36,659 bases of DNA from the NCBI GenBank assembly GCA_944321755.1, contig CALUMM010000023.1, positions 1 through 36,659 of the forward strand. Direction: 5' to 3'. Positions 25,628 to 35,855 of this stretch are shown in pieces. Source of the DNA: an uncultured Alistipes sp. (GTDB lineage: Bacteria > Bacteroidota > Bacteroidia > Bacteroidales > Rikenellaceae). A program made the translations under genes and the position numbers. The notes under the pieces are model-generated. The model was not told the DNA's origin. It saw only the letters and a program-made list of their open reading frames with translations, and made no database searches. Within the stretch, counting starts at the first letter, position 1. Every line of letters starts with the position of its first letter.

Positions 25628-25669
25628 AAAAAGCAGCGCTTCGGATTTCTTTCCGAAGCGCTGCTTTTT
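25628..25669. terminator. Bidirectional intrinsic terminator
   Basis: A perfect 18-base inverted repeat (25628-25645 and 25652-25669, core GCAGCGCTTCGGA) with a 6-base loop is flanked by A and T runs. It serves the lytic transglycosylase gene and the convergent seven-gene surface operon. Confidence 0.95.
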
Positions 25670-25715: not shown

Positions 25716-27461
25716 CTATTTCAGGGGAGTGTAGAGGAGCTCGAAGTCGTCGACCCACATGACGCTCTGGGCACTGCCGGTGAAGTAGTCACCCCATCGC
25801 GAGGCCGAGCAGACCACGATGATATGGGTCGGCTTCCTGTCCGTGGCGACATACTCGATCGGGATGGTGATCTGGGTCCATTCGCCGACGCTCTCCTTGA
25901 AGATCCGCTCGCCGTAGCCGATCACATCTTCGGCCTTGGGGTTGAAGAAGGTCTTCACGTCGCGCGTGTCGATGCTCACCGGGCAGTCGTCCGAACCGAA
26001 GGGCTGTCCGTTTGTCATGCCGGCTCCGTCCTTGCCCATGCCGTACTTCTCCTTGGTCCAGGTTCCGAGTGCGATGTAGATCGAACCGTTGTCCGGATCG
26101 CCTTTCTGGAGGTTCTCCCCGGCGGGCTGGCTGGCGCCGACGGAGGAGATCTTCCCGCAGTCGTATTTCATCCAGACGCGCAGGGCCGTGGGGCGCAGCG
26201 TGAAGGGACGTCCGAAATTCACGATTCCGTTCGTGCCTATGGTGGTGGCGAACTCTCCCGTGAAGATGTTTCCGGCGGCCAGTTTGATCCCCAGCACGTT
26301 GGTGCTGGCGAGTTTGGCCGATTTCGTCCCCGTGGAGCCAGGCCGGACGGTCGTCTCATCGGGGGTTGTAACGTTGTCCTTGTCGCTGATGGTCGTCGAG
26401 CCGTTGTTACCCGTGGCCCAGAAGGGGGAGATCGGCTGTCCTGCTTCATCCGAAAGGTAGAGCAGCCACGGTTTGCCCGGTTTCGACCACTCCTCCATGC
26501 CGTTGTTGGGGAGTTGCTGGACCCCTTCGGTGGTGACGGTCGTGGGGTCGCTCTCGTCGCTGCCGCAGTAGGACTTGAACTGGTAGGTCGTCAGGGGTTC
26601 GGCGGTGAAGGCGGCCGAGAAGGTTCCGCCATTGATCTCCACATCGGGGACCTCGGACCATTCGCCCTCGGTGCCGACCCGGTAGCGGAAGCCCATCTCC
26701 TGCCCGGCAATGCCCGAACCGCGGAGCCAGACGACGCCCGACCAGGCGTCACAGGCTTCGGTCGAGACGGTCTTGTCCGTGGGCAGGATGTAGAGCACCC
26801 AGCGTTCGGTGCGTCCGTGGCAGGTGACATCCACGAAGTGGGGGGTTCCGAGCGTGGGGTCCGCCGCATCGGGCGAACTGTAATCCATGGTCGAGAGCTC
26901 CTCCATCGTGGGGGAGTAGGTTGTGGTGACCGTCTCCGTGGAGGCGGGTCCGAGTTTGAGCTCGGAGATCGTCACCCGGCTGCGGTCGGCATCCTTGGCG
27001 ACATAGGCCGTGGCGATGCGGTTGTCGAGGTCGAATTCCGGGGCTCCGATCTGTCCCTCGACCTGGAAACTCAGCGGAATGGTCTGCGAGGCGACGATCT
27101 GCCAGTCGTAATCCTTGTAGAGCGTCAGGGTGACGTAGAGGGGGGTGCGCAGGTCGAACGTCCCGGTCACCTCTCGCGAGGGGCGGATGTTGTCGAGGAA
27201 GATCTGCCGGTCGATGTTCGTATTGTGCGGGGTGACGGAGTAGGTCACCTCTTCGATGTGCACGTTTTGGATGTCGGTGGCTTCGTCGAGTGCGAGGGTC
27301 ACGGTGCGGGTCGTTGCGTCGATGCCCGCGAGCGTGAAGCCTTCGCCCTGCACGTTGTTGATGGCGACCTCCACGGTCGGGTAGGGCAGGTCGTTGTCGA
27401 TGCACGACATCCCCGGGAGCGTCGCTCCCGCGAAGAGCAGATAGGCAAGGAGTCGTTTCAT
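25716..27461 (-). CDS. PCMD-domain lipoprotein, last gene of the surface operon
   Basis: 581 residues. The lipoprotein signal MKRLLAYLLFAGATLPGMSC places the Cys at 20. Residues about 25-330 are beta-sandwich repeats of immunoglobulin type. The C-terminal 260 residues fit the PCMD ('putative carbohydrate metabolism') domain: NNGMEEWSKPGKPWLLYLSD, SPFWATGNNG, GTKSAKLAS, LAAGNIFTGEFA, INFGRPFTLRP-like NFGRPFTLRPTALRVWMKYD, and the ending SVMWVDDFELLYTPLK. The domain name reflects genome context, not proven chemistry; the fold is jelly-roll-like and may bind glycans. The ATG lies 3 bases after the preceding barrel gene. Surface exposure is inferred from the operon. Confidence 0.85.
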   Translation of the reverse strand: MKRLLAYLLFAGATLPGMSCIDNDLPYPTVEVAINNVQGEGFTLAGIDATTRTVTLALDEATDIQNVHIEEVTYSVTPHNTNIDRQIFLDNIRPSREVTGTFDLRTPLYVTLTLYKDYDWQIVASQTIPLSFQVEGQIGAPEFDLDNRIATAYVAKDADRSRVTISELKLGPASTETVTTTYSPTMEELSTMDYSSPDAADPTLGTPHFVDVTCHGRTERWVLYILPTDKTVSTEACDAWSGVVWLRGSGIAGQEMGFRYRVGTEGEWSEVPDVEINGGTFSAAFTAEPLTTYQFKSYCGSDESDPTTVTTEGVQQLPNNGMEEWSKPGKPWLLYLSDEAGQPISPFWATGNNGSTTISDKDNVTTPDETTVRPGSTGTKSAKLASTNVLGIKLAAGNIFTGEFATTIGTNGIVNFGRPFTLRPTALRVWMKYDCGKISSVGASQPAGENLQKGDPDNGSIYIALGTWTKEKYGMGKDGAGMTNGQPFGSDDCPVSIDTRDVKTFFNPKAEDVIGYGERIFKESVGEWTQITIPIEYVATDRKPTHIIVVCSASRWGDYFTGSAQSVMWVDDFELLYTPLK

Positions 27462-27464
27462 GCG

Positions 27465-28490
27465 TTATTGCTTTTTCTTGTCCCACATGTGGATCGTCAT
27501 ACCGATGTTGATAGCCAGGATGTTGAGTTTGAACTTCATGTTCGAGGCCTCACGGGTTCCGATCTTGTTTCCCAGTTCGTCCTTCTGGGTGACGGAGGTG
27601 TACTGTATTCCGCCGAGTCCGAACGAGAGGGTCGCGCAGACATTCGGGAAGATGTAGACCGCCGCTCCCGGATTAAACGCCAATTTGAGCTGCGTATTGT
27701 CACTGTAGGTCTGTTTTACCTTTCCTTCGGACTCGTAGGCGAATCTCGACGAACCTTTCGATACCGAGAGTTCGAACTCGGCGAAGAGTCCGAAACGCCC
27801 TTTGGGATCGAGCCCGGCGTAGGAGCGGTGGAAGATTCCGAACGAGTAGTTGTTGCTGTTGAAGTCGAGGTAGGGGATGTTGAGTGAGACGTCGTTGTTT
27901 TCGCCCAGGTCGAAGATGGCGCCCTTGTCGAGCGTACCGCTCATGTAGTTGTAGCCGAAGCGGGCGCCCAGGCAGCGGTTGTCGCGGTAGAAGTATCCGA
28001 TAAAGGGCTTCACGGTGGCGACCGTACCGTCGGCATTGATGTTGTCGAGGATAAGCAGGACATCCGTGTCGTCGCTCGACAGCGTGCCGTAGGAGGCTGT
28101 CAGGCCCATGATCACCTCACCCTTGTAGGCGAACTTGAGTCTGTTGATTTCGCGGTCGATGCGTCGGCGGGTGGGCAGGAAGCGTTGTTTCGGGGCCTTT
28201 TTGGCCGGTGCGGCGGCAATTGTGGCCGACGGGCTGTTTTTTTGCAGGCTGTCCGCCTTTTCGGAAACGGCCTTGACCGCATCTTGCAGGCTGTCCGTTT
28301 TTTCGGAAACGGTCGGTTGGGGCGTTGTGCGGTTTACGGTCGTTGCCGGGGTTTCGGCTTTCCCGGGTTCGAACTGCGCCGGGGTTTCAGCCGCAGGTGT
28401 TGCCGGTTGGGTCGGGTTCCCGGAGACGTGCTGCGCCGCTGCCGGAAGCGTCAGGCAGAGCGTAATCAGAAGAAGTATGGATCGTTTCAT
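27465..28490 (-). CDS. Outer-membrane beta-barrel protein, paralogue 2 of the surface operon
   Basis: 341 residues. A signal peptide (1-19, TLPAAAQ) and a Pro/Thr/Ala/Glu-rich linker (about 20-95) with repeated EK(A/T)DSLQ precede a barrel of about 235 residues. Alternating strands include VKPFIGYFYRDNRCLGARFG, FGLFAEFELSVSKGSSRF and KFKLNILAINIGMTIHMW. It aligns along the barrel with the preceding gene (RFGLFAEFELS against RFALFNEMSLA; KFKLNILAINIGMTIH against NFKVNIFSIGLGMAFYL). The linker is absent from the paralogue. The function is unknown; it could be an anchor or export partner for the lipoproteins around it. Confidence 0.8.
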   Translation of the reverse strand: MKRSILLLITLCLTLPAAAQHVSGNPTQPATPAAETPAQFEPGKAETPATTVNRTTPQPTVSEKTDSLQDAVKAVSEKADSLQKNSPSATIAAAPAKKAPKQRFLPTRRRIDREINRLKFAYKGEVIMGLTASYGTLSSDDTDVLLILDNINADGTVATVKPFIGYFYRDNRCLGARFGYNYMSGTLDKGAIFDLGENNDVSLNIPYLDFNSNNYSFGIFHRSYAGLDPKGRFGLFAEFELSVSKGSSRFAYESEGKVKQTYSDNTQLKLAFNPGAAVYIFPNVCATLSFGLGGIQYTSVTQKDELGNKIGTREASNMKFKLNILAINIGMTIHMWDKKKQ

Positions 28491-28502
28491 GACGTACCGG
28501 GT

Positions 28503-29321
28503 TTAGAGATAGAAGGCCATGCCGAGGCCGATCGAAAAGATATTGACCTTGAAATTCATCTGGCTGAGGTTGCGTTCGCCCACGGTGACCTGGTTGTGGA
28601 CCTGTTCGGAGTGGTTGAACGTGATACCCATCACGCCGACATTCACCTCGACGGCCATGTTGTTTGTGGCGAAGGCGATGATTCCGGGTGAGATACCCAG
28701 CGAGAGGGTGTATCCCGTTTCGTAGGTTCCCTTCACGGGCGAACCGTTGGCGAAGCGGGCTTCGGTTCCTCCTCCTGCGAGCGACATTTCGTTGAAGAGT
28801 GCGAATCGCTTGCTGCGGCCCAGGGGGATGTACTGCCGCCAGATGGCTGCGACCTGATAGGAATGCTGCAGGGCGTAGTAGTCCTGGGCTGAGAGGCTTA
28901 CGTTGGAGCCTTCATCCCCGAAGTTGATGGCGGCCTTGTCGAGTTTGAGCAGCGAACGCGAGTAGATGAACCGTCCTCCGAGTGCCATGTTGTTGCGGAA
29001 GGCATAGGCGATCATGGGGCTGACCTTGAAGGTATAGCCTTTGGAGTCGATTCCCTCGATAATCAGGAACTGATAGCTTTTGTTCGTGTGGGTCGAATAG
29101 GAGGCCGTACCGCCGAATACCCACTGGCCTTTCGGGACGAAGAGGTTGTGTGTGTCGGTCAGGCCGCGCCGCTTCCGCATCTCGTTGATGGTCAGGGGGC
29201 GGTGAACGGCGGAGCTGTCTGCGGCCTGCGGGGCCGGGGCAGACTCCTGGGCGTGCAGTGAGCCGCAGGCTGCCGTAAGGCTCGCTCCGAGGAGCAGCAG
29301 GCGGATGAGTGTTGTGCGCAT
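28503..29321 (-). CDS. Outer-membrane beta-barrel protein, paralogue 1 of the surface operon
   Basis: 272 residues from the ATG at 29321. The signal peptide could be cut by signal peptidase I at LHAQ; a LTAAC lipobox-like stretch just before it is a less likely alternative for a barrel. The mature protein begins with LTINEMRKRRGLTDTHNLFV, followed by barrel strands: WVFGGTASYSTHTNKSYQFL, VSPMIAYAFRNNMALGGRFI, FALFNEMSLAGGGTEARF and the C-terminal NFKVNIFSIGLGMAFYL. It is clearly related to the next gene (27465-28490) and probably arose with it by duplication. I do not recognise a named family. Confidence 0.8.
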   Translation of the reverse strand: MRTTLIRLLLLGASLTAACGSLHAQESAPAPQAADSSAVHRPLTINEMRKRRGLTDTHNLFVPKGQWVFGGTASYSTHTNKSYQFLIIEGIDSKGYTFKVSPMIAYAFRNNMALGGRFIYSRSLLKLDKAAINFGDEGSNVSLSAQDYYALQHSYQVAAIWRQYIPLGRSKRFALFNEMSLAGGGTEARFANGSPVKGTYETGYTLSLGISPGIIAFATNNMAVEVNVGVMGITFNHSEQVHNQVTVGERNLSQMNFKVNIFSIGLGMAFYL

Positions 29322-29338
29322 CGTTTTGCGTTTTGTCG

Positions 29339-31486
29339 TTAGTAAACCCACTGGAAGTCGTCGACGTAGAGCCGGTTGGTACTGCATCCGTTCATATAGT
29401 CGCCGTACATGTTCGCCGAACAGGAGATCACGATCTTGTAGGATTTTGAAGGTTTGGTCACTTTGTCGTAGTAGTAGATTTCGAGATCCTTATTGACCAT
29501 TTCGTCGCTGGACGTTGATTCGGTGATCACAAAGCGTCCGTAGCCGATGATCGGACCTTCCGGCTGGCTTGTTGCTGTGGAGGGGTCCCACATGCCGCTT
29601 GGAGCACTCAGACCCGAGGAAACATTGTGCGGGGCATCCCAGTCGACGATGGCTACGTAGATGATTGCGCGGTCGGGCTGTCCGGAGGCGATCGGGTCAT
29701 TGCCGTTCTCGTCCTTGTATTTGGTCATGTTGACCGTGCCGATCGTTGCGTGGTATTTCAGCCGCAGGGCCTTGGGGCGAGATTGCCAGTCGTAATCCTT
29801 CCCGAACCCGACGGTTCCCTGCGTCGAGGGTTTGACGAAGGTCCCCGAGAAGAGATTGCCGGCAGCCATCATTCCTCCGGCGGTCTGTGTGGCCAGCAGG
29901 GCGCATTTCGAACCGTCCTTCTCCTGCTGTGTGCACAGACGGGTCAACTGATCGCCGATGATGGCGCTCATGTAGTTGTTGTTGCCGCTGCCCCAAAAGG
30001 CGGTCGTCTGGTTGTTGATCGAGAAACAGCTCATCGAACCGTCCTCCATATCGCCTCCGGGAATGCTCTGGCCTCCGGCCGTCGTGAACGACGCGAGGCT
30101 CTCCTGTTCGCCGATCACCGCACGGCACTCGTACTCGCCTTCGGCCCAGACGCCCGTCCCGGCCTTCGGCGTGTAGATGGTCTGTCCGTTTTCGTTGGTC
30201 GACTCCACCCATTCGGCGCCGAGCGAGGCTGTCCAGTAGCCGTCGCCGGAGTTCGTGCCGACCACTTCCTGCCATTCCCCTGCTTTCGAACGCAGTCCGA
30301 AGGTGACTGCCGAGGCTCCCGCGTCGAATACCCGGGCGCGCAGCGTGACGGTATTCCGCCATAGGTCGTAATCCGCCTCCGAGGGCGTTATGATTCCCTG
30401 CAGCGCGAAGATGCACTCCGCATCGCCGTTTCCGCCGCCGTTGTCCGAAGCCTCGAAACGCAGCGTGTGGTCGCCGCCCGTGCATCCGGCAAAGAAGTCG
30501 TCGGAGAGGGTCACGGTGAGGGCGTTTTCGGCCGTCTGCTCCACGGCAAGGCCTGCTGCGGGAGCCGAAATCGCCGCCAACAGATCATACGGTTTTCCGT
30601 CGAAGGTCAGCGTCGCCGCCGTCATCGGTTTGACGGTCGTGATCAGGAAGCGCTTTTCGCCGCCCTGATACTGTTGCGTCTCGGACATCTCGAAACCGTC
30701 GCCCTCGATCGTCGGGTCGGGGCTCCAGATGATCGTGTCGTCGAAGTCGTCGGTCGAGTCGTCCACGCGGATCGCAACGGCCTCGATGAATCCCGGCAGA
30801 TCGGGCGAGTAGCGGAACGTCAACGTGTATTTCCCCGGGTTCCGGACGTCGGGGATGGAACCCGTTTTCGTCACCGTTCCGAGCGTGTTTTGCGTGCCGC
30901 TGAACTGCCACGAAAGGGCATCGACCCCTTCGTCGAGCGTGAAGTAGCCCGTGGCGGCCTCCGTGTAGCGGAGCGTCGAGGCGTCGTCGGCCCGGCTCTC
31001 GTCATACGTGGCGCCTGGCATCACCCGCACCTCGAAGTTCGTGCCGAAATTTTCGGGAATGGTGCCGTCGAAAACCGCGGCGACAGCCGTATTCTGCAGG
31101 GTGCACTTCACCTCGACGGGTGTATTCACCCCGGGAGTTACGGTGAAGGACTCCTCGCCTTTGTAGAGGCGTTGGGTGAACGAGGCGGCAACCTCTTCGC
31201 CGGCCTCCACCGTCACGCGGTACTCTCCGGCCAGGAGTTCCAGACGCTCCGGAAGGTCCTCCTTTGCGGAGTATTTGCGGATCGGATTCCCGTCGCTGTT
31301 GTAGAGGTAGACGGTCAGGTGCTCCATCGGATCGTAAGCGTCGTCAGCCGCCGCATCCGAACGGGTCGAGACCTTCATCGTGAGGGTTCCCGAGGCGCCT
31401 GCGGCGTCGAGCGGTTGGGAACTCTCCGAGCATCCCGCAACGGCGAGTCCCAGCACCGGGAACAAATATCTGTACAGGCGTTTCAT
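29339..31486 (-). CDS. DUF4493-PCMD fusion lipoprotein
   Basis: 715 residues with lipobox AVAGC (Cys 19). The N-terminal DUF4493-like domain (about 30-170) contains MKVSTRSDAA, LTVYLYNSDGNPIRKYS, LLAGEYRVTVEAGEEVAA and VEVKCTLQNTAVAAVF. The middle has several beta-sandwich repeats. The C-terminal 240 residues form a PCMD domain: SIPGGDMEDGSMSCFSINNQ, AFWGSGNN, MMAAGNLFSGTFVKPSTQG, VGFGKDYDWQSRPKALRLKY, IIYVAIVDWD and RLYVDDFQWVY. The fusion links the two families that otherwise occur separately in this operon. The start lies 2 bases from the preceding stop. A structural surface subunit with a glycan-binding-like end is a reasonable guess. Confidence 0.85.
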   Translation of the reverse strand: MKRLYRYLFPVLGLAVAGCSESSQPLDAAGASGTLTMKVSTRSDAAADDAYDPMEHLTVYLYNSDGNPIRKYSAKEDLPERLELLAGEYRVTVEAGEEVAASFTQRLYKGEESFTVTPGVNTPVEVKCTLQNTAVAAVFDGTIPENFGTNFEVRVMPGATYDESRADDASTLRYTEAATGYFTLDEGVDALSWQFSGTQNTLGTVTKTGSIPDVRNPGKYTLTFRYSPDLPGFIEAVAIRVDDSTDDFDDTIIWSPDPTIEGDGFEMSETQQYQGGEKRFLITTVKPMTAATLTFDGKPYDLLAAISAPAAGLAVEQTAENALTVTLSDDFFAGCTGGDHTLRFEASDNGGGNGDAECIFALQGIITPSEADYDLWRNTVTLRARVFDAGASAVTFGLRSKAGEWQEVVGTNSGDGYWTASLGAEWVESTNENGQTIYTPKAGTGVWAEGEYECRAVIGEQESLASFTTAGGQSIPGGDMEDGSMSCFSINNQTTAFWGSGNNNYMSAIIGDQLTRLCTQQEKDGSKCALLATQTAGGMMAAGNLFSGTFVKPSTQGTVGFGKDYDWQSRPKALRLKYHATIGTVNMTKYKDENGNDPIASGQPDRAIIYVAIVDWDAPHNVSSGLSAPSGMWDPSTATSQPEGPIIGYGRFVITESTSSDEMVNKDLEIYYYDKVTKPSKSYKIVISCSANMYGDYMNGCSTNRLYVDDFQWVY

Positions 31487-31488
31487 GG

Positions 31489-32841
31489 CTACTCTTCAGT
31501 TGGTCTTACAAGGGTCAGCGTGGCCGAAGCCTCCCCGCCCGCGGGATCGATCACTTTAAGATGGAATTGGTGGCTCTCACCCGGATTGCCCATTCCGTTG
31601 AGCAGGCCGATGATCTCGGAGGAGATTTCGAAAAAGGTGCTCGTTTGTCCCTTGACCTCATCGCCGACCGGGAAGCCAACAGCCCCTTTCAGCAGTTGAC
31701 CCTCATCGCTTTCAGCGTCGATCTTACAGAGGTCGAATTCACCCGTCAGAGCTGGCATCGTGGCAAGAATCTCTTCCAAACTGCTGGATTCGATCCGCAC
31801 AAGCAGCGACTGGATGCCACCGTTCGGAGCCGTGATGTCAACATGTACCGGTTTGTCTGTTTCCATGACGTAGGGCTGCGCGATGTCCCAGTCCTGCATG
31901 ACGATCGTCGGGGCTTCACCGGGCTCTTCGCCTCCGCCCTCCTCGAAGACCTCCTCCCAGAGTCCGTCAGTACCGTTGATGGTGATCGTGTCGTCGAGCA
32001 CGAAGTTGTCGACCTGAATGTCGAACTTGATCTCTCCCTGGTCGGCGTAGGCGATTACCAGTTCGATTTTGCGCCACTGTCCGGCCTTGACGCCCGAGAT
32101 TGTCTTGCTGAAGAGCTTCTTCGTTTCACCGCCGTCGGTGAATGCGCCGTAGAGTTCGAAATCGAGCTCGTTCTCCTCGGCCGCAGGCATGAAGAAGGCG
32201 GCCTGCAGCCCATCCCAGTGCTCTTTCGAGAACTCCAGCGAGGCACTTCCGAGCGAAATGGTGGCTTTGGTATCGTCGGTGAGCTGGTCGGCCAGGTCTG
32301 CCGAGCAGAGCAGCGTCACCTTGATGTTCTGCAGCGTGCAGACGATCTCCTCGATCGGGGTGGTGGCCCCTTTCGTAATCGAGAAGGTGTAGGTCGTGCC
32401 GTAGACCGGGGCGTTCCAGGCCGCAGCCTGAATCTCCTCCGTGCGGTGGGAGCAGACCGTCAGCGTATAGTTGCCGACCGGCAACTCCTTGGGACCGGCC
32501 GCGAGTTCTGCCTGCAGCTCCGCATAGGTGCCGTCGAAATGCGACTTCTGATCGTCCGTGTTGACGATCTGGACGAGGTAGTCATCCGTTTCGGTCACCG
32601 CACGGGTCGAAGCTTGCGTGGAGGGCGGAGTTTGGGTCTCGTCCTGCGTATCGTCGGGCTGGGTGTCGGTCTCGGTGTCGTAGATCACGCGCAGACTCAT
32701 CGCTCCGCTCAGGAAGCCTGTCGTTGCGGAATCTGTCGTTCCGTTTCCCGCGTTTTTGTAGGGCGGTTCCTCGTTTACGCAGCCCGTCAGCAGGAGGGCT
32801 CCCAGACTCAAGGTCGTAAATAATCCGGTAAAGGTTTTCAT
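31489..32841 (-). CDS. DUF4493 lipoprotein
   Basis: 450 residues; lipobox LLTGC with Cys 21. A Thr/Gln/Asp-rich spacer (about 55-78) ends in ASTRAVTETDDYLVQIVN. The DUF4493 core is at about 80-200, with LPVGNYTLTVCSHRTEEIQA, VYGTTYTFSITKGATTPIEE and IVCTLQNIKVTLLCSADL. The second half (about 200-450) is beta-rich, with an acidic FEEGGGEEPGE linker near 310 and an ending like an immunoglobulin strand (SATLTLVRPTEE). The gene starts 15 bases after the preceding one and ends 2 bases before the next. Confidence 0.82.
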   Translation of the reverse strand: MKTFTGLFTTLSLGALLLTGCVNEEPPYKNAGNGTTDSATTGFLSGAMSLRVIYDTETDTQPDDTQDETQTPPSTQASTRAVTETDDYLVQIVNTDDQKSHFDGTYAELQAELAAGPKELPVGNYTLTVCSHRTEEIQAAAWNAPVYGTTYTFSITKGATTPIEEIVCTLQNIKVTLLCSADLADQLTDDTKATISLGSASLEFSKEHWDGLQAAFFMPAAEENELDFELYGAFTDGGETKKLFSKTISGVKAGQWRKIELVIAYADQGEIKFDIQVDNFVLDDTITINGTDGLWEEVFEEGGGEEPGEAPTIVMQDWDIAQPYVMETDKPVHVDITAPNGGIQSLLVRIESSSLEEILATMPALTGEFDLCKIDAESDEGQLLKGAVGFPVGDEVKGQTSTFFEISSEIIGLLNGMGNPGESHQFHLKVIDPAGGEASATLTLVRPTEE

Positions 32842-32856
32842 ATCTCGTGTCGTTTT

Positions 32857-33657
32857 TTATGCGTTGGTTTCCTCTTCGGCGTTGTCGTTCAGCTCGATGT
32901 CGAACGTGCGTTCATCGAGGTATTCGTCGTAGAGATTGATCGTCACCGAGGCGCTTCCGCTGTTCTGTGCATCGAAGAGGAACGTATGGCGCGTGCGGGC
33001 GACAGCCTGTTCGAGCGTCTGCTCGGGGAAGGTGTAGTTGCGGTCGAAGGCCGTGCCGGTCTGGCTCTGGAGCTTGGCCGTACCCGTGAGGGTCAACTTC
33101 GAACCGGCCTCGACGAAGACCGCTTCGTCCGCCGTTTCGGCACCGGGCGTGAAGGTAAAGCGGTTCCCGGCGGAGGTGGTGACGGTGAAGGTCGCGTCAT
33201 GGAAATAGTTCAGAAACGCTTCCGTGGCCGTGACGAGCACCTGGGCATTGGCGATCTGTACGGGAATGGTCTCCTCGACGCTTTGGCGGGCGACGATTTC
33301 GATGTTTTTCGTTCCGTAGTAATAGGGTTTGCCGACCCCTTCGGCCTTCGGATCTCCGTAGGAGAGGGTTGCGGTGTAGGTTCCGGCCGGGAGCGTTTCG
33401 CCCGCGTCGTTGAATGCGGCGAGGCTCTCCCAGGTCTGGAAGTAATCCGTTCCGGAGATCGTGAGGGCGAGCTCCCCGGCGGTCGGGACCGGCGTAACGG
33501 CGATTTGGGCCCGTGTGGTGATCAGGGCGTCGGTGCGGCAGTCGATACGGAGGGTTCCGTAGCCTTCGCCGTTTGCGGGGGTCTCATTTTTGGCGCATCC
33601 TCCGGCTGCGACGGCCGCCGCTGCCAGGAGAAGAATCCGAATATTTTTCATGTTCAT
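32857..33657 (-). CDS. DUF4493 lipoprotein, short form
   Basis: 266 residues; lipobox AAGGC with Cys 21. The sequence then follows the DUF4493 plan: YGTLRIDCRTDALITTRAQI, LPAGTYTATLSYGDPKAEGV, PYYYGTKNIEIVARQSVEET and IPVQIANAQVLVTATEAF. The C-terminus (ASVTINLYDEYLDERTFDIE) is a single beta-rich tail without PCMD domain. This is the smallest lipoprotein of the operon and would suit a major repeating subunit; that is speculation. It starts 8 bases after the fimbrillin-like gene. Confidence 0.82.
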   Translation of the reverse strand: MNMKNIRILLLAAAAVAAGGCAKNETPANGEGYGTLRIDCRTDALITTRAQIAVTPVPTAGELALTISGTDYFQTWESLAAFNDAGETLPAGTYTATLSYGDPKAEGVGKPYYYGTKNIEIVARQSVEETIPVQIANAQVLVTATEAFLNYFHDATFTVTTSAGNRFTFTPGAETADEAVFVEAGSKLTLTGTAKLQSQTGTAFDRNYTFPEQTLEQAVARTRHTFLFDAQNSGSASVTINLYDEYLDERTFDIELNDNAEEETNA

Positions 33658-33665
33658 GGCGGTCG

Positions 33666-35483
33666 TTATTGGGCGATGGATACACGGATGTCGTCCAGAT
33701 ACAGATAAAGGGTTTTACGTGTCAATGTAGGAGAGGAACCTGTACTGGATTCCATTTCATAAGTGCACCTCCAACTCAAACGAGTTCCAACTTCAACATT
33801 GTATATTGTATACTGTTTGGGTGGTGTTGGCAGAGATTCAGTCATGCTGCCTCCGATGTCCGGGCGGAATGTTTCAATCAGATTGGTAGGAACATTCTCT
33901 TCTCCGGATATTGGGAAGGAGGCCGGATTGGTTTCCGTTCCGAACTGGCAGACCGAAACCCAATAGGAAGTACCGAGGAATGCTGCTCCACTTACTCGGG
34001 AACCCCCGATGCTGTATGAAACTTCAATGTTGGCGCTTTTTTTGAGTGGTAAAACAGGTGAATCGAGCCTTCCGCAGTGTGAGCCACCGAAAATTCCCTC
34101 TGTACTTGACGCAATCCAGACAGCACAAGCTAGTCTGCCGGGTGCCATTGAATAGCGAGATGCTCCCCAGTCTGCGAGGTTGTAGTCCGTCAAAAGTTCT
34201 GTATTTTCGCTTTCACGAGTTTGTTCGATACCGCTGAAATCCTCCTCGAAGAGATATGGCACGCGGAAGCTGGCGACGCGGTTCACGGCTCCTGCGGTTA
34301 CTGCCGGCAGGGTGAAGGTCTCGGTCAGAAGGGCGTGCTCCGAATCGTACGTCACCTGGAATCCGGGCATCTCCTGTGTCGGGTTCGTGTAGCCCCGGAA
34401 GCGAACCGTATAGTCGCCCGTGCCCGTGACGTCGAACGTACGGCTCTGACTGCCGTCCTCGAAGCTCCAGCCCTCGGGTGCCGTCACCGTAAAGGTGTTG
34501 ATCGCCTCGCCCAGCGTGTTGACGCCCGTCTCCGTGAGGGTGAAGACCAACTGCGTGAGCTGCTCTGCCGCTGCCGGAATGTTGTAGTTGATCGGCGTGG
34601 TGTGACCGGCGGCAAAGGTCCGGTCGGCCGGGGCGAAGGTCCGCTCCTCCGATTCAAGGGCCGAGCTCGACGCCACGATCGAAACCTCCTGCCCCTCTTC
34701 GAGCGTGACGGGGGCAATCAGGGCGTAGACCTCGGCGCCGACATCCTTCGGCTCCGCAAAACGCAGGGTCAGCGTGTTGCTCGACTCGCTCAGTTCGGCC
34801 GCGGCGTCGGGGTTGGCGGCATCCACCGTCAGACGCCCCACGACAGGTGTCGGGAAGGTCAGCACGATCTCCGAGACCGGTTCCCCGAGGTCGTTGTGCG
34901 GAATGGCGATCTTCAGGACATGCATCTTGTGCGCAAACTGCAGGTTGACGATATCCGTGTTGTCGCTGATGCCGCTTGCATCCTTCTTGTCGTGTTCGCG
35001 CAGGGCGTCGGCCCCCTCGATCGGCGTGGCCACCATCACGTCCCACTCGCCGTGGAACGCTCCGTCCTGCACGGCCGGGATGTCGTAGCTGGCCCGCAGG
35101 CCCTCGGTCGAGGCCGGAACGGGCGACACGGCATAATAAGTATAGGTCTCCTCGGCCATCTGCGGGATGCTGCCGCGGAAGCTGGCCGAGTTGTAGGTCG
35201 CATTATAGTGGTAGAGGCTGAAGGCCGCGGCGTCGACTACGGTTTGAGCGGCGGAGTTTACGGCCCAGAGTGCGAGCCGGTCACCTGTCTGCCATTTGAC
35301 GCTCACACCGTCGTCTCCGAGTTCGGTGCGGGTCGTGGATTGGGGCCGGATGTCGAGTCGCGGACCCGAACCGATGGCCACCTCGATGCTTCTTGTTGCC
35401 GGATCGGTCGCCTCGTCCGTGTTTTTCGAACAGGCGGCGCACAGCAGCGGCAGAAGAAGCAGGGTTGTCCAATGTTTCATCAT
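33666..35483 (-). CDS. Fimbrillin-like lipoprotein with an AT-richer C-terminal module, first gene of the surface operon
   Basis: 605 residues from the ATG at 35483 (a second ATG follows at once). The signal peptide ends at LLCAAC (Cys 18). The N-terminal 300 residues match the fimbrillin family of Bacteroidetes: IRPQSTTRTELGDDGVSVKW, QTGDRLALWAVNS, YYAVSPVPAS and LQFAHKMHVLKIAIP. A central sandwich (about 310-405) follows. The C-terminal 195 residues start at about LFEEDFSGIEQTRESENTEL and end in KTLYLYLDDIRVSI, like jelly-roll domains at the ends of Bacteroidetes adhesins. This last part is encoded by distinctly AT-richer DNA (33666 to about 34250). It is the first gene behind the operon promoter and a good candidate for a tip or adhesive subunit. 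Confidence 0.85.
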   Translation of the reverse strand: MMKHWTTLLLLPLLCAACSKNTDEATDPATRSIEVAIGSGPRLDIRPQSTTRTELGDDGVSVKWQTGDRLALWAVNSAAQTVVDAAAFSLYHYNATYNSASFRGSIPQMAEETYTYYAVSPVPASTEGLRASYDIPAVQDGAFHGEWDVMVATPIEGADALREHDKKDASGISDNTDIVNLQFAHKMHVLKIAIPHNDLGEPVSEIVLTFPTPVVGRLTVDAANPDAAAELSESSNTLTLRFAEPKDVGAEVYALIAPVTLEEGQEVSIVASSSALESEERTFAPADRTFAAGHTTPINYNIPAAAEQLTQLVFTLTETGVNTLGEAINTFTVTAPEGWSFEDGSQSRTFDVTGTGDYTVRFRGYTNPTQEMPGFQVTYDSEHALLTETFTLPAVTAGAVNRVASFRVPYLFEEDFSGIEQTRESENTELLTDYNLADWGASRYSMAPGRLACAVWIASSTEGIFGGSHCGRLDSPVLPLKKSANIEVSYSIGGSRVSGAAFLGTSYWVSVCQFGTETNPASFPISGEENVPTNLIETFRPDIGGSMTESLPTPPKQYTIYNVEVGTRLSWRCTYEMESSTGSSPTLTRKTLYLYLDDIRVSIAQ

Positions 35484-35510: not shown

Positions 35511-35541
35511 CAAAAATAGGTTCGGAGTCCGAGATCCCGAA
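35511..35541 (-). promoter_or_regulatory. Promoter of the seven-gene surface operon
   Basis: On the minus strand TTCG (35538-35541, one mismatch), a 19-base spacer and TATTTTTG (35511-35518, exact) lie 27 bases before the ATG at 35483. The gaps between the seven genes are 2-17 bases, so one transcript is expected. Confidence 0.65.
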
Positions 35542-35617: not shown

Positions 35618-35657
35618 AAAAAGCCCCTCCGACACACACTTGTCGGAGGGGCTTTTT
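35618..35657 (-). terminator. Intrinsic terminator between the S9 peptidase gene and the surface operon
   Basis: A perfect 17-base inverted repeat (35618-35634 and 35641-35657, core GCCCCTCCGACA) with a 6-base loop has T runs in both directions. It ends minus-strand transcripts coming from the peptidase gene, about 210 bases beyond its stop. Together with the promoter and the repeats it accounts for the gene-free stretch 35484-35867. Confidence 0.9.
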
Positions 35658-35662
35658 CGGGG

Positions 35663-35855
35663 TTTTCGGGAGATTCCCGGGGCCGAAGATTTTCGGGAGA
35701 GGGTCGGGGCCGGAGGCTCCGAAGTCGAGGGGGTCGGGACAGATTTCCGGACCGGACTCAGGCGGATTCCGAAGCCGTTGCCCGCTTTTCCCGGAGGAAT
35801 GGCTGCATGTCCGACTTTCGGTCCGGCAGGTCCGGCAGGTCCGGTAGGTCCGGCC
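35663..35855 (-). repeat. Degenerate short repeats after the S9 peptidase gene (site E)
   Basis: Four tandem units of 9 bases (GGTCCGGCA on plus; 35820-35855, last two imperfect) lie just behind the peptidase stop. Further on an 11-base direct repeat TTTTCGGGAGA occurs at 35663-35673 and 35690-35700, among many CCGG and GGTCGGG words. There is no G9 tract here. No plausible coding frame is seen. Confidence 0.8.

What the first reader, a model, noticed from the sequence alone, without database searches (positions are those of the whole stretch)
25716..35483. Seven-gene operon encoding a possible undescribed surface fibre or adhesin system
One promoter, gaps of 2-17 bases and a strong terminator bound the set: fimbrillin-like lipoprotein, DUF4493, DUF4493, DUF4493-PCMD, two related outer-membrane barrels, PCMD lipoprotein. 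Five lipoproteins with two dedicated barrels suggest a structure assembled at the outer membrane: tip, subunits, and anchor or export barrels. Known Bacteroidetes type V pilus loci do not, as far as I recall, include a pair of paralogous barrels.
Basis: partly seen in the sequence, partly recalled or inferred. Interest (0 to 1): 0.75.

Follow-up and report, generated by a model that had tools for sequence, protein, structure and literature searches.

The report
Surface lipoprotein cassette with paired barrels
A conserved seven-gene operon of gut Alistipes bacteria probably displays a lectin-like protein complex on the outer membrane; its core, a sugar-binding-type protein encoded beside its own small membrane barrel, turns out to be a common but apparently undescribed gene pair in related bacteria.

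Summary
The seven-gene operon is real; the genus is Alistipes. In 29 of 29 same-genus loci not cut by a contig end all seven genes are together, 21 collinear and 8 with the barrel pair turned into a divergent operon. The barrels are not mostly apart from the lipoproteins: of 28 genomes in the order sample with a strong barrel match, 27 have it beside a PCMD gene and 22 also have DUF4493 genes there.

PCMD plus barrel is thus a general pair; this cassette is an elaborate version.

Export-signal-like tails and homology to a levan-binding surface lipoprotein point to the cell surface. The catalytic Asp proposed for BT2081 is absent from the cassette's PCMD proteins, favouring binding over hydrolysis.

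The parts
33666..35483 (-). g1: fimbrillin-like lipoprotein, 605 aa; Mfa_like_1 match 62-307; C-terminal region ending YLDDIRVSIAQ (lectin-like jelly roll inferred)
   Evidence: Mfa_like_1 in 6 of 20 homologues
32857..33657 (-). g2: DUF4493 lipoprotein, 266 aa
31489..32841 (-). g3: DUF4493 lipoprotein with C-terminal extension, 450 aa
29339..31486 (-). g4: DUF4493-PCMD lipoprotein, 715 aa
28503..29321 (-). g5 (b1): putative small outer-membrane barrel, 272 aa from the ATG at 29321 (longest ORF to 29387)
27465..28490 (-). g6 (b2): paralogous putative barrel, 341 aa, low-complexity N-terminal segment
25716..27461 (-). g7: PCMD lipoprotein, 581 aa; conserved tail CIxND(I/L)PYP after the lipid Cys, Ig-like region, C-terminal PCMD jelly roll
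35511..35518 (-). TATTTTTG, -7-type promoter element (TAnnTTTG)
25628..25669 (-). intrinsic terminator hairpin after g7
35618..35657 (.). inverted repeat with T run between the upstream peptidase gene and the operon promoter

Best explanation
The operon makes an outer-membrane surface complex. The core is a general Bacteroidales pair: a PCMD protein (here lipoprotein g7) and its dedicated small barrel, here duplicated into b1 and b2. Steps: (1) the five lipoproteins are lipidated and sorted to the outer membrane (lipoboxes shown, sorting inferred); (2) g1-g4 are flipped to the surface by export-signal-like tails (motif shown, flipping inferred); (3) g7, with its conserved CIxND(I/L)PYP tail, docks on the barrel pair, which holds it at the surface (inferred from gene pairing); (4) g4, a DUF4493-PCMD fusion, links the platform to the DUF4493 proteins g2 and g3 and to g1 (inferred); (5) the jelly rolls of g7 and g4, and the C-terminal region of g1, bind a glycan or other ligand without cutting it (inferred; ligand unknown). 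It is an adhesin or glycan-binding display complex; whether g1-g3 polymerise into a fibre is open.
For: All seven genes in 29 of 29 untruncated same-genus loci. In the order sample 27 of 28 genomes with a strong barrel match, the window's own included, have a PCMD gene beside it, among them minimal barrel-plus-PCMD loci L186 and L187; L204 is one in another order. Repetition with another barrel family: the next gene downstream of PCMD is PF13568 in 32 of 40 loci, upstream in at most 1 of 40; 13 of 16 in a first set by inspection, of which 6 were scanned and 6 are PF13568; base rate 5-18 PF13568 matches per genome in 19 genomes. Two or more acidic residues at +2 to +8: g1 42/67, g2 48/76, g3 58/81, g4 55/81, g7 26/78, with S-K-[DE]-[DE] the commonest residues at +2 to +5 of g1, g2 and g4, close to the published C-X-K-(D/E)2 signal (PMC5080379 passages). 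6 of 40 upstream neighbours of PCMD genes carry a T9SS sorting domain. The g7 family profile, positions 3-206, matches the DUF4960 lipoprotein of a levan utilisome entry (8a9y chain T, E 8e-10), which I take to be Bt1761. BT2081 is an Ig-like domain plus Ca-binding jelly roll with a carbohydrate-type pocket (PMC2954218 passages); its Ca-ligand Asp351 is kept in 28 of 30 g7-type and 29 of 29 g4-type proteins, while the proposed nucleophile Asp259 is Asp in 0 of 27 cassette g7-type and 0 of 29 g4-type proteins. b1 and b2 trace to one duplication and stay together.
Against: No physical interaction, localisation or ligand was tested. Barrel fold unproven for g5/g6 (no structure prediction; the amphipathicity test did not separate barrels from other beta-rich proteins). 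The cassette barrels and the PF13568 barrels show no detectable homology (hhalign probability 0.9%), so the two pairings might be different things. G306 (L188) and, outside the order, G448 (L203) have a strong barrel match without a recognisable PCMD neighbour. 8 of 40 PCMD genes have no PF13568 barrel downstream, and 4 of the 31 barrel-bearing PCMD proteins that I marked by eye begin without a lipid Cys, so lipidation is not universal in the pair. The three minimal PCMD proteins L186, L187 and L204 do keep Asp at the Asp259 column, so hydrolysis is not excluded for the wider pair. g7 itself rarely has two acidic tail residues (26 of 78), and no background lipoprotein set was scored.
Confidence: 0.55

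Rival explanations
1. It is a fibre of type V-like logic: g1 (lectin-like tip), g2 and g3 (stalk), g4 (adaptor) are matured by an Arg-specific protease and polymerise by strand exchange, while uncleaved g7 held by the barrels is the anchor.
For: g1 matches fimbrillin-like Mfa_like_1. A T-R-[ASTG] motif 13-60 residues after the lipid Cys is enriched: g1 33/69, g2 64/95, g3 57/108, g4 51/102 against 6-8 expected from shuffles, g7 only 17/99 against 6.9, as expected if g7 stays lipid-anchored. [quoted passage not shown]
Against: DUF4493 has no sequence match to solved pilins, and 20 g2 homologues match no fimbrillin family up to E 0.1 (one PilS match at 0.085 looks like chance); g1 itself reaches Mfa_like_1 in 6 of 20 homologues; the TR motif is absent in a third to about half of members; no donor-strand tail was shown; no Mfa2-type anchor over cut-off in the operon; the barrel-PCMD pair occurs without pilin-like genes.
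Confidence: 0.27
2. It is a nutrient-capture or glycan-uptake complex, the small barrels being diffusion channels and the lipoproteins glycan-binding lids, like a SusCD or utilisome without a TonB receptor.
For: PCMD is a CBM-like domain, and BT2081 paralogues were linked to polysaccharide-utilisation loci (PMC2954218 passages); the g7 family matches the levan utilisome lipoprotein.
Against: No SusC, SusD, TonB receptor or glycoside hydrolase among the nine window proteins scanned; Asp259 of BT2081 not kept in the cassette; a fimbrillin-like gene is unusual for uptake loci (recalled).
Confidence: 0.15
3. The barrels are dedicated export factors that translocate or fold the lipoproteins and are not part of the finished structure.
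For: A dedicated PorP-like barrel is needed for secretion and surface attachment of cognate T9SS type B proteins (PMC9143113 abstract and discussion).
Against: g1-g4 carry tails like the general export signal, which needs no dedicated barrel as far as I know; two conserved paralogous barrels fit a structural role as well.
Confidence: 0.15

Closest known systems
BT2081/PCMD family (PF13201; PDB 3hbz, 4jrl, 3s30, 4het)
   Same: g7 and g4 carry the same C-terminal domain (g7 family profile against 3hbz E 4e-35), with the calcium Asp351 and pocket Asp338 mostly kept.
   Different: The proposed nucleophile Asp259 is not kept in the cassette; long N-terminal part or DUF4493 fusion; barrel genes upstream of g7 instead of downstream.
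PorP/SprF barrels paired with T9SS type B CTD adhesins
   Same: A dedicated outer-membrane barrel encoded with its cognate surface protein and proposed to anchor it.
   Different: Partners here are lipoproteins without a T9SS sorting domain match; no PorP_SprF family among the four Pfam families matched by 30 b1-type proteins up to E 0.1; about 250 aa, whereas PorP-like barrels are 14-stranded FadL type.
Type V pili (FimA/Mfa1 systems)
   Same: Fimbrillin-like lipoprotein and TR motif near the N terminus.
   Different: Barrels present; no Mfa2 anchor match over cut-off; an Mfa2 gene lies elsewhere in the genome.
SusCD utilisomes / surface glycan-binding lipoproteins
   Same: Barrel plus surface lipoproteins; the N-terminal part of the g7 family matches the levan utilisome lipoprotein.
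   Different: No SusC, SusD or hydrolase in the operon.

Membership tests
PCMD (PF13201) | Pfam score over the curated cut-off | tested here: met
   g7 144.7 and g4 88.2 bits, cut-off 28
PCMD as glycoside hydrolase | proposed catalytic Asp259 and Asp338 of BT2081 | tested here: not met
   Asp259 column: Asp in 0 of 27 cassette g7-type, 0 of 29 g4-type, 3 of 3 minimal PCMD proteins; Asp338 column: 27 of 30 and 26 of 29 (mapping)
DUF4493 (PF14900) | Pfam score over the curated cut-off | tested here: met
   g2, g3, g4 at 123-140 bits, cut-off 27
Type V pilus | fimbrillin-fold stalk subunit | tested here: inconclusive
   g1 matches Mfa_like_1; DUF4493 has no link by sequence; fold not predictable here
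Type V pilus | N-terminal protease site in stalk and tip, absent in anchor | tested here: inconclusive
   TR motif enriched in g1-g4, weakly in g7; cleavage itself untested
Type V pilus | donor-strand polymerisation | not testable with these tools
   needs structure or microscopy
Type V pilus | Mfa2/FimB anchor gene in the locus | tested here: not met
   only a sub-threshold Mfa2 match in g4 (16.3 bits, cut-off 21.2)
PorP/SprF with type B CTD substrate | T9SS C-terminal sorting domain on the partner and PorP_SprF barrel family | tested here: not met
   neither among the matches
SusCD/utilisome | SusC-type TonB-dependent barrel and SusD | tested here: not met
   none among the nine window proteins scanned
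Surface-exposed lipoprotein (LES) | acidic export signal after the lipid Cys | tested here: inconclusive
   two or more acidic residues at +2..+8 in 63-72% of g1-g4 homologues and 26 of 78 of g7; no background set scored

The most novel reading that the evidence does not exclude
A distinct Bacteroidota outer-membrane display system: a lectin-like PCMD protein locked to a dedicated small barrel (a counterpart, mostly for lipoproteins, of the PorP/SprF-type B pairing), from which, in Alistipes and relatives, a duplicated barrel platform nucleates a fimbrillin-like/DUF4493 fibre that is neither type V pilus nor SusCD.
Probability: 0.25. Interest if true: 0.8.

Novelty: new variant of a known kind. 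Interest (0 to 1): 0.55.

Why it matters
It gives two orphan domain families (DUF4493, PCMD) a shared context and a testable role, and it predicts a barrel partner for many PCMD proteins of Bacteroidales, a family with four solved structures and no assigned function. If the barrel anchors its partner, it would be a further way, beside SusCD-type and PorP-type pairing, in which these bacteria tie surface proteins to a barrel.

Tried and rejected
Glycoside hydrolase reading of the cassette's PCMD proteins: the proposed Asp259 is not kept. T9SS cargo: no sorting domain match in the operon. Sigma-70 promoter scan: uninformative. Profile link between cassette barrels and PF13568 barrels: none found. 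PDB sequence searches for the barrels, for g1 and for DUF4493: no meaningful hit. Amphipathic-strand count: raised for barrels but also for DUF4493 and g1, so not used as evidence. Weak barrel matches (E about 1e-5 to 1e-15; 16 fetched loci, L191-L201 and L205-L209, two of them under 4 kb): none beside a PCMD gene by my profiles, read as generic barrels. Literature: DUF4493, 0 papers; PCMD domain or PF13201, 0 papers; PCMD with Bacteroides, 5 papers in the listing, one opened and without the word in its main text; BT2081 and like names, 2 papers in the listing, of which the BT2081 paper was seen as outline and passages: these link BT2081 paralogues to SusC-type porins, and the word barrel does not occur in the main text.

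Counts exclude or depend on: 5 of 34 same-genus loci cut by contig ends; proteins without a lipobox by my pattern (14 of 81 g1, 7 of 83 g2, 7 of 88 g3, 14 of 95 g4, 15 of 93 g7; identical sequences dropped, near-identical ones kept); the 16 and 40 PCMD loci were picked by hand from the capped hit list before their neighbours were seen, and are not a strict rank or random sample. The tally counts some contigs twice and is not used for fractions. In the 80 named loci, 66 match all seven profiles, but g4 and g7 profiles match each other's PCMD, so this overstates completeness (L106 and L107 end before g7).
Full report
Anatomy. Seven minus-strand genes run from 35483 down to 25716: g1 fimbrillin-like, g2 DUF4493, g3 DUF4493, g4 DUF4493-PCMD, g5 (b1) and g6 (b2) putative barrels, g7 PCMD (no NCBIfam model over its cut-off). 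Gaps are 2-17 bp with g5 starting at 29321. A hairpin follows g7, an inverted repeat with a T run precedes the promoter region, and TATTTTTG stands 35 bp before g1; 24 of 31 same-genus g1 upstream regions carry TAnnTTTG against 3.5 expected. The -7 motif itself is recalled.

Conservation in the genus. The barrel search finds two copies in 35 of 37 same-genus genomes; the two without are 74% and 85% complete. A scan of named genome contigs shows the group to be Alistipes and other Rikenellaceae (best 80 of 234 relatives kept). I fetched 36 barrel neighbourhoods, 34 of them same-genus. Five of the 34 are cut by contig ends; the other 29 carry all seven families, 21 collinear and 8 with b1-b2 divergent from F-D-D-DP-P. 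So the barrels can leave the operon but not the neighbourhood. In the named set one locus, L181, shows b1-b2-PCMD with no g1 or DUF4493 match in about 10 kb on either side.

Across the order. DUF4493 occurs in 34 of 295 genomes, PCMD in 138 of 295, the barrel profile in 39 of 295, 28 of them with E below 1e-20. Of these 28 (the window's genome is one), 27 have a PCMD gene beside the barrel or barrel pair, and 22 have DUF4493 genes in the same cassette; G314 would be a 23rd, its cassette seeming split over contig ends. Exceptions are instructive: G129 (L186) and G219 (L187) have just a barrel plus a short PCMD lipoprotein; G209 (L189) and G175 (L190) have b1-b2-PCMD, G175 with its D-D-DP set on another contig (L079); G306 (L188) has no recognisable PCMD beside the barrel. 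In the phylum sample (20 of 395 genomes matched) two further matches below 1e-20 lie outside the order: G406 with a PCMD neighbour (L204) and G448 without (L203). Nine of the 34 genomes with DUF4493 have no strong barrel match and only one or two DUF4493 genes.

One duplication. A maximum-likelihood tree of 50 barrels puts all 20 b1 in one group (98/99) and all 20 b2 in another (100/100); the seven single barrels lie outside both. The pair is old and kept together, as for partners in one structure; long branches and open forks leave the place of the single barrels unsure.

The pairing is general. I then looked at PCMD genes outside the cassette, picked by hand from the list before seeing their neighbours. 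In 16 loci, 13 have a small barrel-like gene beside PCMD by inspection; six of these were scanned and all six are PF13568. In 40 further loci (20 mostly high-scoring, 20 lower) the next gene downstream matches PF13568 in 32. Upstream, PF13568 is not among the 25 families listed of 66, which are ordered by count, so it can match at most 1 of 40. PF13568 matches number 6 in the window's own genome and 5-18 in 19 of these genomes, a fraction of a percent of genes. Of 31 PCMD proteins that I marked by eye as barrel-bearing, 27 begin with a lipoprotein-type Cys and 4 (L245, L249, L251, L255) do not; those without a barrel include about 320-340-aa proteins without a clear lipobox and some much longer proteins. 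PF13568 and cassette barrels have no detectable sequence relation, so pairing with a barrel has either been kept through extreme divergence or arisen more than once.

Surface location. After the lipid Cys, the commonest residues of g1, g2 and g4 read S-K-[DE]-[DE], and two or more acidic residues at +2..+8 occur in 42/67, 48/76, 58/81 and 55/81 of g1-g4 homologues, close to the published export signals C-X-K-(D/E)2 and SDDDD (PMC5080379, passages); a 2025 paper uses two or more acidic residues as its sign of such a signal (PMC12578637, figure legend passage). Many barrel-paired PCMD lipoproteins outside the cassette have C-I-x-[DE]-E tails. g7 has a related but fixed tail, C-I-x-N-D-(I/L)-P-Y-P: N at +4 in 89%, D at +5 in 80%, P at +7 in 91% and P at +9 in 89% of 78 proteins. 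Six of 40 upstream neighbours carry a T9SS sorting domain and six a PCMD match (probably the same six, not checked one by one). Positions 3-206 of the g7 family profile match the DUF4960 lipoprotein of the levan utilisome (8a9y chain T, E 8e-10); I take it to be Bt1761, whose lipidated and central domains are Ig-like and which sits on the SusC barrel (PMC7618045 passages). The BT2081 authors already called BT1761 a paralogue of BT2081.

Binding, not cutting, in this cassette. BT2081 (3hbz) is an Ig-like domain plus a calcium-binding jelly roll with a deep pocket; Asp259 and Asp338 were proposed as catalytic (PMC2954218, outline and passages). Mapped by the printed alignment, Asp259 is Asp in 0 of 27 cassette g7-type proteins (one Glu) and 0 of 29 g4-type proteins, but in 3 of 3 minimal PCMD proteins; Asp338 is kept in 27 of 30 and 26 of 29, the calcium ligand Asp351 in 28 of 30 and 29 of 29. 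The numbering rests on my reading of the construct described in that paper. For the wider family hydrolysis is not excluded.

Fibre or not. T-R-[ASTG] near the N terminus is enriched in g1-g4 and less so in g7, which fits type V maturation with g7 as the uncut anchor. Against this, DUF4493 shows no link to pilins by sequence, and the structure tool that could have helped was not available. The genome has a separate Mfa2-type locus on contig C15 whose two neighbours look like lipoproteins, not barrels (inspection only).

Verdict. My searches of open-access PubMed Central gave no description of this pairing in what I saw; subscription papers and preprints were not searched. In working it most resembles the PorP/SprF anchoring of type B proteins, but it is not a member of that family by the tests made.

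Noticed in passing
L036, L041, L043, L044, L047, L048, L052, L054: The barrel pair forms a divergent operon against F-D-D-DP-P in 8 same-genus loci, a rearrangement that keeps linkage.
   Followed up: partly
probably L246, L248, L250, L252, L254, L259: Likely three-gene sets: T9SS-tagged PCMD protein, PCMD lipoprotein, PF13568 barrel (one search counts six sorting domains upstream; which loci was not checked one by one).
   Followed up: partly
25716-27461 (g7) and homologues: Conserved tail CIxND(I/L)PYP right after the lipid Cys, fixed like a docking signal.
   Followed up: partly
L083, L089, L091: Single-barrel cassettes with further DUF4493 genes downstream of g7, so that the barrel-PCMD core is flanked by DUF4493 genes on both sides.
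   Followed up: no
L090:4936-6261: b2 homologue with about 186 extra N-terminal residues before the barrel region.
   Followed up: no
35820-35854: Three overlapping 17-bp copies at 9-bp spacing, rich in GGTCCGGCA, between the upstream peptidase gene and the operon.
   Followed up: no
L203:9753-10454: Cassette-type barrel (E 1e-29) in another order without a PCMD neighbour, beside a TPR protein gene.
   Followed up: no
L181: b1-b2-PCMD locus of an uncultured Bacteroidales bacterium with no g1 or DUF4493 match in the fetched 20.8 kb.
   Followed up: no
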